From positions 1-38,325 of the forward strand of contig JAAZEK010000197.1 of NCBI GenBank assembly GCA_012512335.1: a stretch of 38,325 nt of DNA, in the 5' to 3' direction. The stretch comes from Clostridiales bacterium. GTDB taxonomy: Bacteria; Bacillota; Clostridia; Caldicoprobacterales; DTU083. The position numbers and the translations under genes were made by a program. Below, one piece after another: positions 1 through 37,547 of this stretch. The notes beneath the pieces are model-generated. The model searched no databases, was not told the DNA's origin, and saw only the letters and a program-made list of their open reading frames with translations. Position 1 is the stretch's first letter. Each line of letters begins with the position of its first letter.

Positions 1-93
1 TGCTTAACGCATTTTCTGCTGATATTCGCTAAGATTGATAATCGTTCCTGCAAAGGCTCCTTCCATATGATTTATTATTTTGCAGTGAACAGT
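1..93 (-). mobile_element. MITE-like element copy 1, truncated by window start
   Basis: tgcttaacgcattttctgctgatattcgctaagattgataatcgttcctgcaaaggctcc...atttattattttgcagtgaacagt is the reverse complement of the left half of the copy at 7415-7635; ends in the TIR cagtgaacagt. Confidence 0.8.
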
Positions 94-214
94 AACGATT
101 ATTTTGCTCTACATAAATTATATTGTTATATAGTACACAGTAACGCTTATTTAGGTTAGAATAAGGTATAAAGATAGAGATAATAATTTTAGATGGAAGG
201 GTGGAGTAAAGAGG

Positions 215-2235: not shown

Positions 2236-2475
2236 TGAGCAGAATTTCAAGTAATGTACCATTTTCGACATGAATTTGGAGCTTTTTAGTCATTTGTGAG
2301 CAGAAATTCAACTAATGCATAAAAAATCTAAGAAAAACCGTGCACTAGTTGAAAAATTGCACAGAAAAGACCAAAAATCAGATAAAATACAGTGAAATCC
2401 ATACACTACTTGATATTTTGCTCATAAATAGGTAAATTACTAGTGTAATCTATGCACTAGTTGAAAAATTGCACA
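2236..2475. repeat. Two-sided array of ~24-bp motif (TGAGCARAAWTTCAASTARTGYA), inverted then direct
   Basis: Inverted units at 2236-2258 and 2297-2320; opposite-orientation units at 2341-2364, 2402-2425, 2453-2476; a weaker unit near 2148-2170. Confidence 0.7.
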
Positions 2476-2488
2476 GAACTCATGGATT

Positions 2489-2599
2489 ACTGTTCACGCC
2501 AAAATAATAAATCATATGGAAGAAGCCTTTGCAAGATTGATTCGTGATGGCAACAGCGACTGGAATATATTTATTATTTTAATTTACTCAGTGAACAGT
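2489..2599 (+). mobile_element. MITE-like element copy 2, internally deleted (111 bp)
   Basis: actgttcacgccaaaataataaatcatatg...ggaatatatttattattttaatttactcagtgaacagt; both TIRs kept, interior missing relative to 7415-7635. Confidence 0.85.
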
Positions 2600-2682
2600 T
2601 TCCCCCATGGTACTTTTATAGAACTTACCACCAAAACCATTTGACTTAGTCGCTGTTGGTTTCTATAATGAAATGGATGTAA

Positions 2683-2783
2683 AATTAGTAGATTAGAAGA
2701 TAGAACTAGTAAATTAGAAGATAAATTAGTGGACTAGCAGATAAACTAGTAGATTAGAAGGTAACTTAGTAGATTGGCAGATT
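2683..2783. repeat. Degenerate 20-bp tandem repeat, 5 units
   Basis: Units aattagtagattagaagatag / aactagtaaattagaagata / aattagtggactagcagata / aactagtagattagaaggta / acttagtagattggcagatt. Confidence 0.85.
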
Positions 2784-2835: not shown

Positions 2836-3528
2836 ATGAGGTACAAGGATATAATATCAGGCATTTTTCTAAAGCGGCCGAACCGCTTTATTGCTCATGT
2901 GATGGTAGATGGAAGAGAAGAAATCGCACATGTAAAGAACACTGGAAGGTGTAGGGAGTTGTTGATACCTGGTGTTACAGTGTATCTGCAGCAGCATGAT
3001 AACCCCAAACGTAAGACAAGATTTTCACTTATAGCAGTGGAAAAAGGTGAGCTTTTAGTAAATATGGATAGTCAAGCTCCTAATAAAGTTATGTTGGAAG
3101 CCTTATCTAATGGACTCTCTTTACCGGGTCTGATGGAGCCCTTGACCAAAATCCAGTCGGAATCTGTGTATGGCAACTCACGCTTTGATTTTTATGTTGA
3201 ATCAAGGGATAAGGAAGCCTATATTGAGGTAAAAGGAGTCACTCTAGAAGACGGAGGAGTAGCAAAGTTTCCAGATGCACCTACCGAACGTGGTGTGAAG
3301 CACATTCGGGAGCTGATAGAAGCTGCTAATACAGGATTTTTAGCATATATCATCTTCGTGGTACAGATGAAAGGAATAACTTATATGACAGCTAATGATG
3401 AAACCCACGAAGCATTTGGAGAAGCACTGCGTGAAGCTCATAAGGCTGGTGTGACGGTGATTGCCTATGATTGTCTGGTTACCCCTGATAACTTACAGAT
3501 AGATCAAGTCATACCTGTGATACTCTAG
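2836..3528 (+). CDS. sfsA: DNA/RNA nuclease SfsA (sugar fermentation stimulation protein homolog)
   Basis: 230 aa; RPNRFIAHV, HVKNTGRCRELL, SRFDFYVE...YIEVKGVTL, FPDAPTERGVKHI motifs. Confidence 0.93.
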   Translation: MRYKDIISGIFLKRPNRFIAHVMVDGREEIAHVKNTGRCRELLIPGVTVYLQQHDNPKRKTRFSLIAVEKGELLVNMDSQAPNKVMLEALSNGLSLPGLMEPLTKIQSESVYGNSRFDFYVESRDKEAYIEVKGVTLEDGGVAKFPDAPTERGVKHIRELIEAANTGFLAYIIFVVQMKGITYMTANDETHEAFGEALREAHKAGVTVIAYDCLVTPDNLQIDQVIPVIL

Positions 3529-7205: not shown

Positions 7206-7414
7206 AAAACTAGATCCTTTCAGTATTTACACATCATTAGTCGTAGTTAGATAATCTACAAATTGAACCTAAATAATACTACATCATATTCTATGACGTT
7301 TTTTACCATAGAAAGTTCCATGGGATCGTTTCTTACTTGCCAACTATTAATTATATATTATTTTGGACTCGTTTTCAATTAGTAAATCAACGTCTCAGCA
7401 ATCTTAGAGTAATA

Positions 7415-7635
7415 ACTGTTCACATCCAAAATAATAAATCATATGTAAGGAGCCTTTGCAGGAACGATTATCAATCTTAGCGAATATCAGCAGAAAATGC
7501 GTTAAGCACCTTTCACTGTCTGAACGAAGTGAGTTTGGAAGATGTAGGATTTTCAGCTGAGATGAGCTCTAGATTGATTCGTGATGGCAACAGTGACTGG
7601 AATATATTTATTATTTTGATTTCCCAGTGAACAGT
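7415..7635 (+). mobile_element. MITE-like element copy 3, full length (~221 bp)
   Basis: TIRs actgttcac...gtgaacagt; subterminal aaaataataaat / atttattatttt; interior matches copy 4 (reverse complement). Confidence 0.9.
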
Positions 7636-7644
7636 CACTAATAA

Positions 7645-7974
7645 CTAGAGCAATTGAAGTAATGCTGATGCAATAATTCCTGTTAGAATTGTCAGGAGCA
7701 AATTTTTAGTCTTAAATGCTACCAGTATGCAGGGGAGTGCGGCAATTAAGGTGGTGTTATCCAAGGAAAAGGATAAATTGCCATTGGGCATAAAAAGGCT
7801 GGGGAAGAGTAGTGCGGATAACACAGCTATTGGAATTTGTTTCAGCCAGCGGATAACCAGCGGTGGTAGATTTAAGCGTGACAGCACCACTAAGGGAAGA
7901 AGCCTAGGAAGTTGGGTGACAATACTCATGCCTATAATTATATAAATCATATCTGATCTCATTTGTCCAACCAC
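7645..7974 (-). CDS. azlD: AzlD family branched-chain amino acid transport protein
   Basis: 109 aa; TQLPRLLPLVVL...LPPLVIRWLKQIPIAVLSALLFP. Confidence 0.88.
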   Translation of the reverse strand: MVGQMRSDMIYIIIGMSIVTQLPRLLPLVVLSRLNLPPLVIRWLKQIPIAVLSALLFPSLFMPNGNLSFSLDNTTLIAALPCILVAFKTKNLLLTILTGIIASALLQLL

Positions 7975-36121: not shown

Positions 36122-36206
36122 GCGAATAAATTACTCCATCTGAGGCAATACTTTCTTTAAGAAGGACATCCTGTTTTTCACAGGATCAGGGATGGAGGGA
36201 AAATGC

Positions 36207-36980
36207 ATGCACACGAATAAAGTGGAAATTTGTGGCGTAAACACATCGCAGCTTCCTGTCCTTACAAATGAGGAAATGATGAAGCTATTTTCGCGAATGC
36301 ATGCCGGAGACGAAAGTGCAAGACAAGAGTTTATACAGGGAAATCTGCGATTGGTGCTCAGTGTGATTCAGCGATTCAATAATAGGGGCGAGTCTGTAGA
36401 CGACTTGTTTCAGGTTGGTTGCATTGGCTTGATTAAGGCTATTGACAATTTTGATACGTCTCATAATGTTCGATTTTCTACCTATGCAGTACCGATGATC
36501 ATCGGGGAAATTCGAAGATATCTTCGAGATAATAATTCTATAAGGGTTAGCCGCTCTCTTAGAGATATAGCTTATAAGGCATTGCAGGTTAGAGAACAAT
36601 TAATTTTCAAGAATTCCAAGGAGCCAACAGTATCAGAGATTGCTAAAGCATTAGAAATGCCTAGGGAAGAAGTCGTGTTTGCCCTGGACGCAATTCAAGA
36701 TCCAATTTCATTGTTTGAACCTATCTATCATGATGGCGGTGATGCCATATTTGTAATGGATCAAATCCAAGATGAAAAGACTCAGGATGAAACTTGGTTG
36801 GAGGGAATTGCCTTAAAAGAGGCCATGAAGAAGCTAAACGATCGGGAAAAACTGATACTCACCTTAAGGTTCTTTGATGGAAGAACTCAAATGGAGGTAG
36901 CCGAGGAAATCGGTATCTCTCAAGCACAAGTATCAAGACTTGAAAAGACAGCTTTAAATCATATGCGCAAATATATTTGA
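36207..36980 (+). CDS. sigG: RNA polymerase sporulation sigma factor SigG
   Basis: NKVEICGVNTSQLPVLTNEEM, DLFQVGCIGLIKAIDNFD, ISQAQVSRLEKTAL. Confidence 0.95.
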   Translation: MHTNKVEICGVNTSQLPVLTNEEMMKLFSRMHAGDESARQEFIQGNLRLVLSVIQRFNNRGESVDDLFQVGCIGLIKAIDNFDTSHNVRFSTYAVPMIIGEIRRYLRDNNSIRVSRSLRDIAYKALQVREQLIFKNSKEPTVSEIAKALEMPREEVVFALDAIQDPISLFEPIYHDGGDAIFVMDQIQDEKTQDETWLEGIALKEAMKKLNDREKLILTLRFFDGRTQMEVAEEIGISQAQVSRLEKTALNHMRKYI

Positions 36981-37038
36981 CCTAATCCTCGTCATTTTTT
37001 CTCTTCTAGCTTAATAAGATAGAAGGAGAAGATTAGTT

Positions 37039-37261
37039 ACTGCTCATAACTAGGGAAAATAAAAAATATATTTCACTCACTGTTGCGCTCACGAATCAAT
37101 CTAGAGCTCATCTCAGCTGAAAATCCTACAACTTCCAAACTCACTGCGTTCAAACAGTGAAAGTTGCTTAACGGATTTTCTACTGATATTCGCTAAGATT
37201 GATAGTCGTTCCCGCAAAGGTTCGTTGCATATTATTTTTTATTATACAAGACGTGAGCAGT
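37039..37261 (-). mobile_element. MITE-like element copy 4, full length (~223 bp), variant TIR
   Basis: actgctca...tgagcagt TIRs; interior (gaatcaatctagagctcatctcagctgaaaatcctac...tgatattcgctaagattgat) is the reverse complement of copy 3. Confidence 0.88.
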
Positions 37262-37292
37262 AGCGAAGATAGCAGTGGAGCGAGGTGATTAT

Positions 37293-37547
37293 ATGCCAAA
37301 ATCATCGGATTTTAGAACAAAGGAAGTCATAAATGTCCGAGATGGCAGACGTCTAGGTAATATTATTGATATGGAATTTAATTTAAGTGAAGGAAGGATA
37401 ACAGCTATTGTAGTTCCTGGTGCTAGCCGATTCCTAGGCTTACTTAAGGAAGAGGATGATGTAATAATTCCCTGGGATAAGATCAAAAAAATAGGTGACG
37501 ATGTAATACTAGTGGATGTTGCTATTCGAGTTCCTATGCATGGATAG
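37293..37547 (+). CDS. ylmC: YlmC/YmxH family PRC-barrel sporulation protein
   Basis: RTKEVINVRDGRRLGNIIDMEFNLSEGRITAIVVPG; ATG at 37293 with gaggtg RBS. Confidence 0.88.
   Translation: MPKSSDFRTKEVINVRDGRRLGNIIDMEFNLSEGRITAIVVPGASRFLGLLKEEDDVIIPWDKIKKIGDDVILVDVAIRVPMHG

What the first reader, a model, noticed from the sequence alone, without database searches (positions are those of the whole stretch)
7415..7635. Dispersed ~220-bp MITE-like family (4 copies in 38 kb) with nested inverted repeats
Full copies at 7415-7635 and 37039-37261 (opposite orientation), a deleted one at 2489-2599, and one at the window edge. TIR ACTGTTCAC/GTGAACAGT, then subterminal AAAATAATAAAT/ATTTATTATTTT, then an inner TCACTGT...ACAGTGA pair conserved in both full copies. 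No ORF or transposase. All copies are intergenic. The density suggests an abundant genome-wide family; the nested symmetry suggests a foldable RNA or cruciform.
Basis: seen in the sequence. Interest (0 to 1): 0.62.

Follow-up and report, generated by a model that had tools for sequence, protein, structure and literature searches.

The report
Hairpin MITE family with IS66-type ends
The window carries four copies of a short, gene-less jumping element that is scattered in dozens of copies through this spore-forming bacterium, and its ends match those of a subgroup of the IS66 insertion sequences whose enzyme most likely moves it, as it seems to move many unrelated hairpin elements in other gut and anaerobic bacteria.

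Summary
Target-site duplications (TSDs) are exactly 8 bp: 9 of 44 own-genome copies are exact, 26 of 44 match at 6 or more of 8, against about 1% in a control; the flagship copy has TAATAACT at 7410-7417 and 7639-7646. The genome holds about 40 or more copies and 152 TIR ends (control 9); shortened copies run from 57 to 151 bp. Each full copy is one imperfect hairpin, with 10 pairs changed on both sides (shuffles 3.0 +/- 1.5). No Rfam match; none of the 44 copies lies inside a long ORF.
New: the same TIR and 8-bp TSD bound unrelated hairpin interiors in Lachnospiraceae, Christensenellaceae and Coriobacteriia. A 2272-bp element with identical TIRs and an exact 8-bp TSD (L341) encodes an IS66-family transposase that clusters with ISBst12-type elements of Geobacillus and Deinococcus (TIR GTAACTATTCA, 8-bp TSD), apart from canonical IS66.
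Best reading: non-autonomous MITEs moved in trans by ISBst12-type IS66 transposases. No partner was found in the host genome. A new MITE family of a known kind; the RNA reading is unsupported.

The parts
1..96 (-). Copy A: MITE cut by the contig edge; outer TIR 85-96 (GTGAACAGTAAC)
   Evidence: 1-82 is 99% complementary to 7427-7508
2486..2602 (+). Copy B: internal-deletion derivative, 117 bp; TIRs ATTACTGTTCAC / GTGAACAGTTTC; TSD ACTCATGG/CCCCATGG (6 of 8)
7412..7638 (+). Copy C: full MITE, 227 bp; left TIR eroded, right TIR 7627-7638 GTGAACAGTCAC
7410..7417 (.). Left TSD of copy C, TAATAACT (overlaps the eroded left TIR)
7639..7646 (.). Right TSD of copy C, TAATAACT
7427..7438 (+). Subterminal AAAATAATAAAT of copy C, pairs with ATTTATTATTTT before the right end; near-invariant stem
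37036..37264 (-). Copy D: full MITE, 229 bp, diverged subgroup; TSD GAAGATTA/GAAGATAG (6 of 8); between sigG (36192-36980) and the ylmC/ymxH-type gene (37275-37547)

Best explanation
The repeat is a non-autonomous DNA transposon (MITE). SHOWN: a 12-bp TIR GTTACTGTTCAC, 8-bp TSDs, no ORF, a whole-length hairpin, dozens of copies and many internal-deletion derivatives. SHOWN elsewhere: an element with identical TIRs and an 8-bp TSD that encodes an IS66-family transposase of the ISBst12 type. INFERRED: such a transposase, recognising the 12-bp ends, moved the MITE in trans, with an 8-bp staggered cut giving the TSD. INFERRED: the hairpin interior is tolerated or favoured because folding brings the two ends together, and hairpin-provoked replication slippage makes the shortened copies. 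The host's own partner has been lost, or lies in the unassembled part of this MAG.
For: Copies and TIR count. TSD: only length 8 stands out; 9/44 exact, 26/44 at 6 or more of 8, control about 1%. Hairpin and covariation: (97.2% of cells paired; 10 pairs with double changes against 3.0; slid controls 4 or fewer). Same TIR and 8-bp TSD on unrelated interiors in other taxa. Partner: L341 695-2966, both TIRs exact, TSD TAAATGGA, PF03050 1.2e-13 and NF033517 1.1e-31. Same ORF1 and transposase behind the same TIR in L104; a like end after the transposase in L398, L404 and L406. ISBst12-type TIR GTAACTATTCA with exact 8-bp TSD in ISGst1 and relatives; ISDge4 TIR GTAACTGCTCAGCA with 8-bp direct repeat (PMC12898284). 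Tree: new transposases with ISGst1/Deinococcus/Chlorohelix, apart from canonical IS66, 100/100.
Against: No ISBst12-type transposase was found in the host MAG (one PF03050 hit, canonical IS66 with TIR GTAAGCGTCAAATAC), and several MITE-rich genomes gave no PF03050 hit at all. No similarity between the MITE and L341 beyond the ends was noted (not tested by a dedicated alignment). Transposition was not observed, and insertion polymorphism was not tested.
Confidence: 0.8

Rival explanations
1. MITEs mobilised by another 8-bp-TSD family (canonical IS66, IS256, or an IS4 relative such as IS1675) that happens to have this TIR.
For: IS4 (IS1675-like) and canonical IS66 copies sit in the same genomes; IS4 copies or derivatives were found inside GTTACTGTTCAC elements (L246, L247, L358).
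Against: Canonical IS66 TIRs are GTAAGCG. IS1675-type TIR is CCAATGTCATTAAGTTAAGG, and these copies look like nested insertions into the MITE TIR. No IS256 in the host or in G392. The host IS4 has a different TIR.
Confidence: 0.1
2. A foldable functional RNA or regulatory hairpin family (terminator or attenuator), with selection on its RNA structure as the reason for its spread and conservation.
For: Strong fold (z -5.0, -6.5), compensatory changes, copies intergenic.
Against: No Rfam match; 8-bp TSDs and TIRs show transposition; both strands fold strongly; other families with the same TIR have unrelated interiors. Arm-to-arm exchange also gives compensatory changes.
Confidence: 0.06
3. Fixed relics of an old burst: a former MITE that is now immobile in this host (compatible with the best explanation for its origin; differs on present activity).
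For: Pairwise identity averages 91%; many copies have eroded TIRs or TSDs; no partner found in the host; the sister species in the genus has only fragments.
Against: 9 exact TSDs and pairs up to 98% identical suggest some fairly recent insertions.
Confidence: 0.4

Closest known systems
IS66 family, ISBst12 subgroup (ISGst1, Geobacillus and Deinococcus relatives, ISDge4)
   Same: Similar ends (GTAACTATTCA or GTAACTGCTCAGCA against GTTACTGTTCAC), 8-bp TSD, homologous transposase in L341, no TnpB seen in L341
   Different: The window element has no transposase; the autonomous element L341 carries an extra ~100-aa ORF of no known family before the transposase and is 2272 bp against ~1.5-1.65 kb for the relatives measured
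Prokaryotic MITEs (for example MITEAba12 PMC6382973, MITEPsy1 PMC3189936)
   Same: Short, non-coding, TIR-bounded, TSD-making, several to many copies
   Different: Here one TIR is shared by 23 sequence-unrelated interiors across two phyla, nearly all long hairpins
ERIC, REP and other palindromic intergenic repeats (from general knowledge)
   Same: Intergenic, palindromic, dispersed
   Different: TIR plus 8-bp TSD give it a transposon identity; no Rfam match in the window

Membership tests
MITE | Terminal inverted repeats | tested here: met
   GTTACTGTTCAC at both ends
MITE | Target-site duplication of fixed length | tested here: met
   8 bp only; copy C TAATAACT
MITE | Short and without a transposase gene | tested here: met
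   about 57-231 bp; no ORF of 80 aa or more lies in the window copies
MITE | Multiple dispersed copies | tested here: met
MITE | Mobilised by an autonomous partner with the same ends | tested here: inconclusive
   Partner type with identical TIR found in other records (L341, L104), not in the host; mobilisation itself cannot be tested here
IS66 family, ISBst12 subgroup (L341 as partner) | IS66 DDE transposase (PF03050) | tested here: met
   1.2e-13, above Pfam cut-off; NF033517 1.1e-31 but below its curated cut-off
IS66 family, ISBst12 subgroup (L341 as partner) | Transposase groups with ISBst12-type rather than canonical IS66 transposases | tested here: met
   Split supported 100/100, (midpoint root; ISBst12 itself was not at hand, ISGst1 and Geobacillus/Deinococcus relatives stand in)
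IS66 family, ISBst12 subgroup (L341 as partner) | 8-bp TSD and GTnACTnnTCA-type TIR | tested here: met
IS66 family, ISBst12 subgroup (L341 as partner) | Single transposase ORF, no accessory ORF | tested here: not met
   An extra ~100-aa ORF of no known family precedes the transposase in L341 and L104; hence called ISBst12-type, not a member of ISBst12
Rfam RNA family | Match to a covariance model | tested here: not met
   No match at gathering score in the window

The most novel reading that the evidence does not exclude
The foldback interior is a functional requirement of this transposition system. Any hairpin that acquires two GTTACTGTTCAC ends becomes a substrate, so unrelated hairpin families arise repeatedly across Bacillota and Coriobacteriia; in the extreme, two TIRs 3 bp apart (27 bp) are themselves mobile, as the 12 such units with 8-bp TSDs in Murimonas intestini could suggest.
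Probability: 0.15. Interest if true: 0.7.

Novelty: new member of a known kind. Interest (0 to 1): 0.42.

Why it matters
It gives an unannotated genome-wide repeat a mechanism (ISBst12-type IS66 transposition) and shows one 12-bp end shared by many unrelated MITE families across two phyla of mostly anaerobic and gut bacteria. I found no description of IS66-derived MITEs in the papers that I could search (open-licence papers only). The pattern makes a general question testable: does a bacterial transposase prefer hairpin cargo, and how small can a substrate be?

Tried and rejected
Canonical IS66 as partner: host copy and others have TIR GTAAGCG. IS256: none in the host or G392. IS4: host copy has another TIR. 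L246 in Murimonas first looked like an autonomous partner; it is an IS1675-like IS4 nested in a MITE. The C282 pair 2604 bp apart in the host is two deleted MITEs flanking host genes. TIR ends fetched from about 20 further host regions belong to this same MITE family apart from two that sit in other sequence (C10, C177); none is an IS end. Searches with the MITE in plasmids and phages gave nothing useful. Exact TIR pair 188-218 bp apart in viral contigs: none. Paper search for the TIR as text: none.

Full report
OBSERVATION. The repeat is genome-wide: BLAST of 7405-7645 against the host assembly (2.9 Mb, 583 contigs, 87.6% complete) gave 46 matches, about 40 of them separate copies; only 40 of 157 candidates were scored, so this is a floor. 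The 12-mer GTTACTGTTCAC at 1 mismatch or fewer occurs 152 times against 9 for the reversed pattern. In about 20 further host regions fetched around such ends, the ends belong to the same family apart from two that sit in other sequence.

BOUNDARIES. The TIR is 12 bp, GTTACTGTTCAC. For 44 delimited host copies, exact flanking duplications were found for 9 at length 8, 1 at length 4 and none at lengths 5-7 or 9-11; 26 of 44 match at 6 or more of 8, against about 1% when left and right flanks of different copies are compared. The flagship copy has TAATAACT at 7410-7417 and 7639-7646; its left TIR is eroded, as expected from slippage between two ACTGTT repeats (inference).

STRUCTURE. Most full copies are 221-231 bp, mean pairwise identity 91%. 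The element folds over its whole length. On 23 full copies, a 77-pair structure is paired in 97.2% of cells; 10 pairs have double changes against 3.0 +/- 1.5 in shuffles and 4 or fewer in slid structures. Clear cases are columns 101-134 (C-G to A-U and G-C), 91-140 and 41-189. The shuffle control does not remove relatedness, and the structure was derived from these sequences, so this shows that the arms change together, not that an RNA is selected; exchange between arms would do the same. Derivatives of 57-151 bp lack part of the interior of the hairpin. No copy lies inside an ORF of 100 aa or more; a few overlap an ORF edge.

DISTRIBUTION. The same interior is found only as fragments in the one other genome of the genus, and among the other relatives searched only short matches appeared. 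The TIR is much wider. A scan of 84,980 species genomes for an exact TIR pair 188-218 bp apart gave 45 stretches in Lachnospiraceae, Christensenellaceae, other Clostridia, Atopobiaceae and other Coriobacteriales; by my count, 16 of the elements have an exact 8-bp TSD and 5 more match 7 of 8. With the ends trimmed, 51 elements including the host consensus form 23 unrelated clusters; interiors fold better than shuffles (z -2.7 to -17.4) in 22 of 23. In 14 such genomes the exact 12-mer occurs 6-209 times against 2 or fewer for the control. G392, in another family of the class, has its own hairpin MITE with this TIR and an unrelated interior.

PARTNER. Scanning viral contigs for GTTACTGTTCACAC found L341 695-2966: 2272 bp, exact TIRs, exact TSD TAAATGGA. 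It encodes a ~100-aa ORF of no known family and a 556-aa protein with the IS66 transposase domain. L104 in G084 begins with the same TIR, the same ORF1 (63% identity) and the same transposase (52%) before its contig ends; L398 (50%) ends in CTGAACAGTAAC shortly after the stop; transposase C-terminal fragments lie just inside such a TIR in G404 (GTTACTTTTCAC), G084 (exact) and, with weaker TIRs, G405. Plasmid relatives include Geobacillus, Anoxybacillus and Deinococcus IS66 elements. Three of these have TIR GTAACTATTCA and exact 8-bp TSDs; ISDge4, placed in the ISBst12 group by its authors, has GTAACTGCTCAGCA and an 8-bp repeat (PMC12898284). In a tree the new transposases group with these and apart from canonical IS66 at 100/100.

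MECHANISM. Most likely the MITE ends are recognised by an ISBst12-type transposase acting in trans. Shown: ends, TSD length, and the transposase family of an element with the same ends. Inferred: trans-mobilisation, and that the host partner is lost or unassembled. I found no ISBst12-type transposase in the host.

SIDE OBSERVATIONS. In Murimonas intestini a 142/143-bp element dominates, and 12 sites hold only 27 bp, two TIRs 3 bp apart, with 8-bp TSDs (6 of 12 exact; sites were selected for a TSD match of 5 or more of 8, so the share is not a rate). The 142-bp element carries an internal extra TIR, so deletion between direct repeats explains them; the 9:3 ratio of inner to outer type fits a crossover anywhere in the 12 bp. 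Direct movement of 27 bp is not excluded. IS1675-like IS4 elements or derivatives appear to have inserted into such elements at least three times (L246, L247, L358).

VERDICT. A real, large MITE family with a well-supported partner type. Ordinary in kind, new as a family, unusual in how many unrelated hairpins share one end.

Noticed in passing
L199 1486-1512, L255 554-580, L257 492-518, L290, L291, L317 and others (Murimonas intestini, G403): 27-bp units made of two TIRs 3 bp apart, flanked by 8-bp TSDs; possibly slippage products of a 142-bp MITE, possibly the smallest mobile form.
   Followed up: partly
L246 ~341-2035; L247; L358 ~211-944: IS1675-like IS4 elements (TIR CAATGTCATT) or their derivatives sitting in the TIRs of GTTACTGTTCAC elements; IS1675-type copies in plasmids also sit in palindromic flanks.
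   Followed up: partly
L341 891-1205; L104 2268-2573: Conserved ~100-aa ORF (IYQYDKRSGITYAYESYSYWDKEKKMTRAKRKLIGR) of no known family before an ISBst12-type transposase.
   Followed up: partly
window 2341-2478; L025; L036; L055: Second short intergenic repeat, TGCACTAGTTGAAAAATTGCACAGAA, in loose arrays at a few host loci.
   Followed up: partly
window 2682-2782: AT-rich tandem repeat, 20-bp and 40-bp periods (AAATTAGTAGATTAGAAGAT), directly upstream of sfsA (2836-3528).
   Followed up: no
window 37036-37294: Copy D ends about 10 bp before the predicted start of the ylmC/ymxH-like gene after sigG, so it may affect its expression.
   Followed up: no
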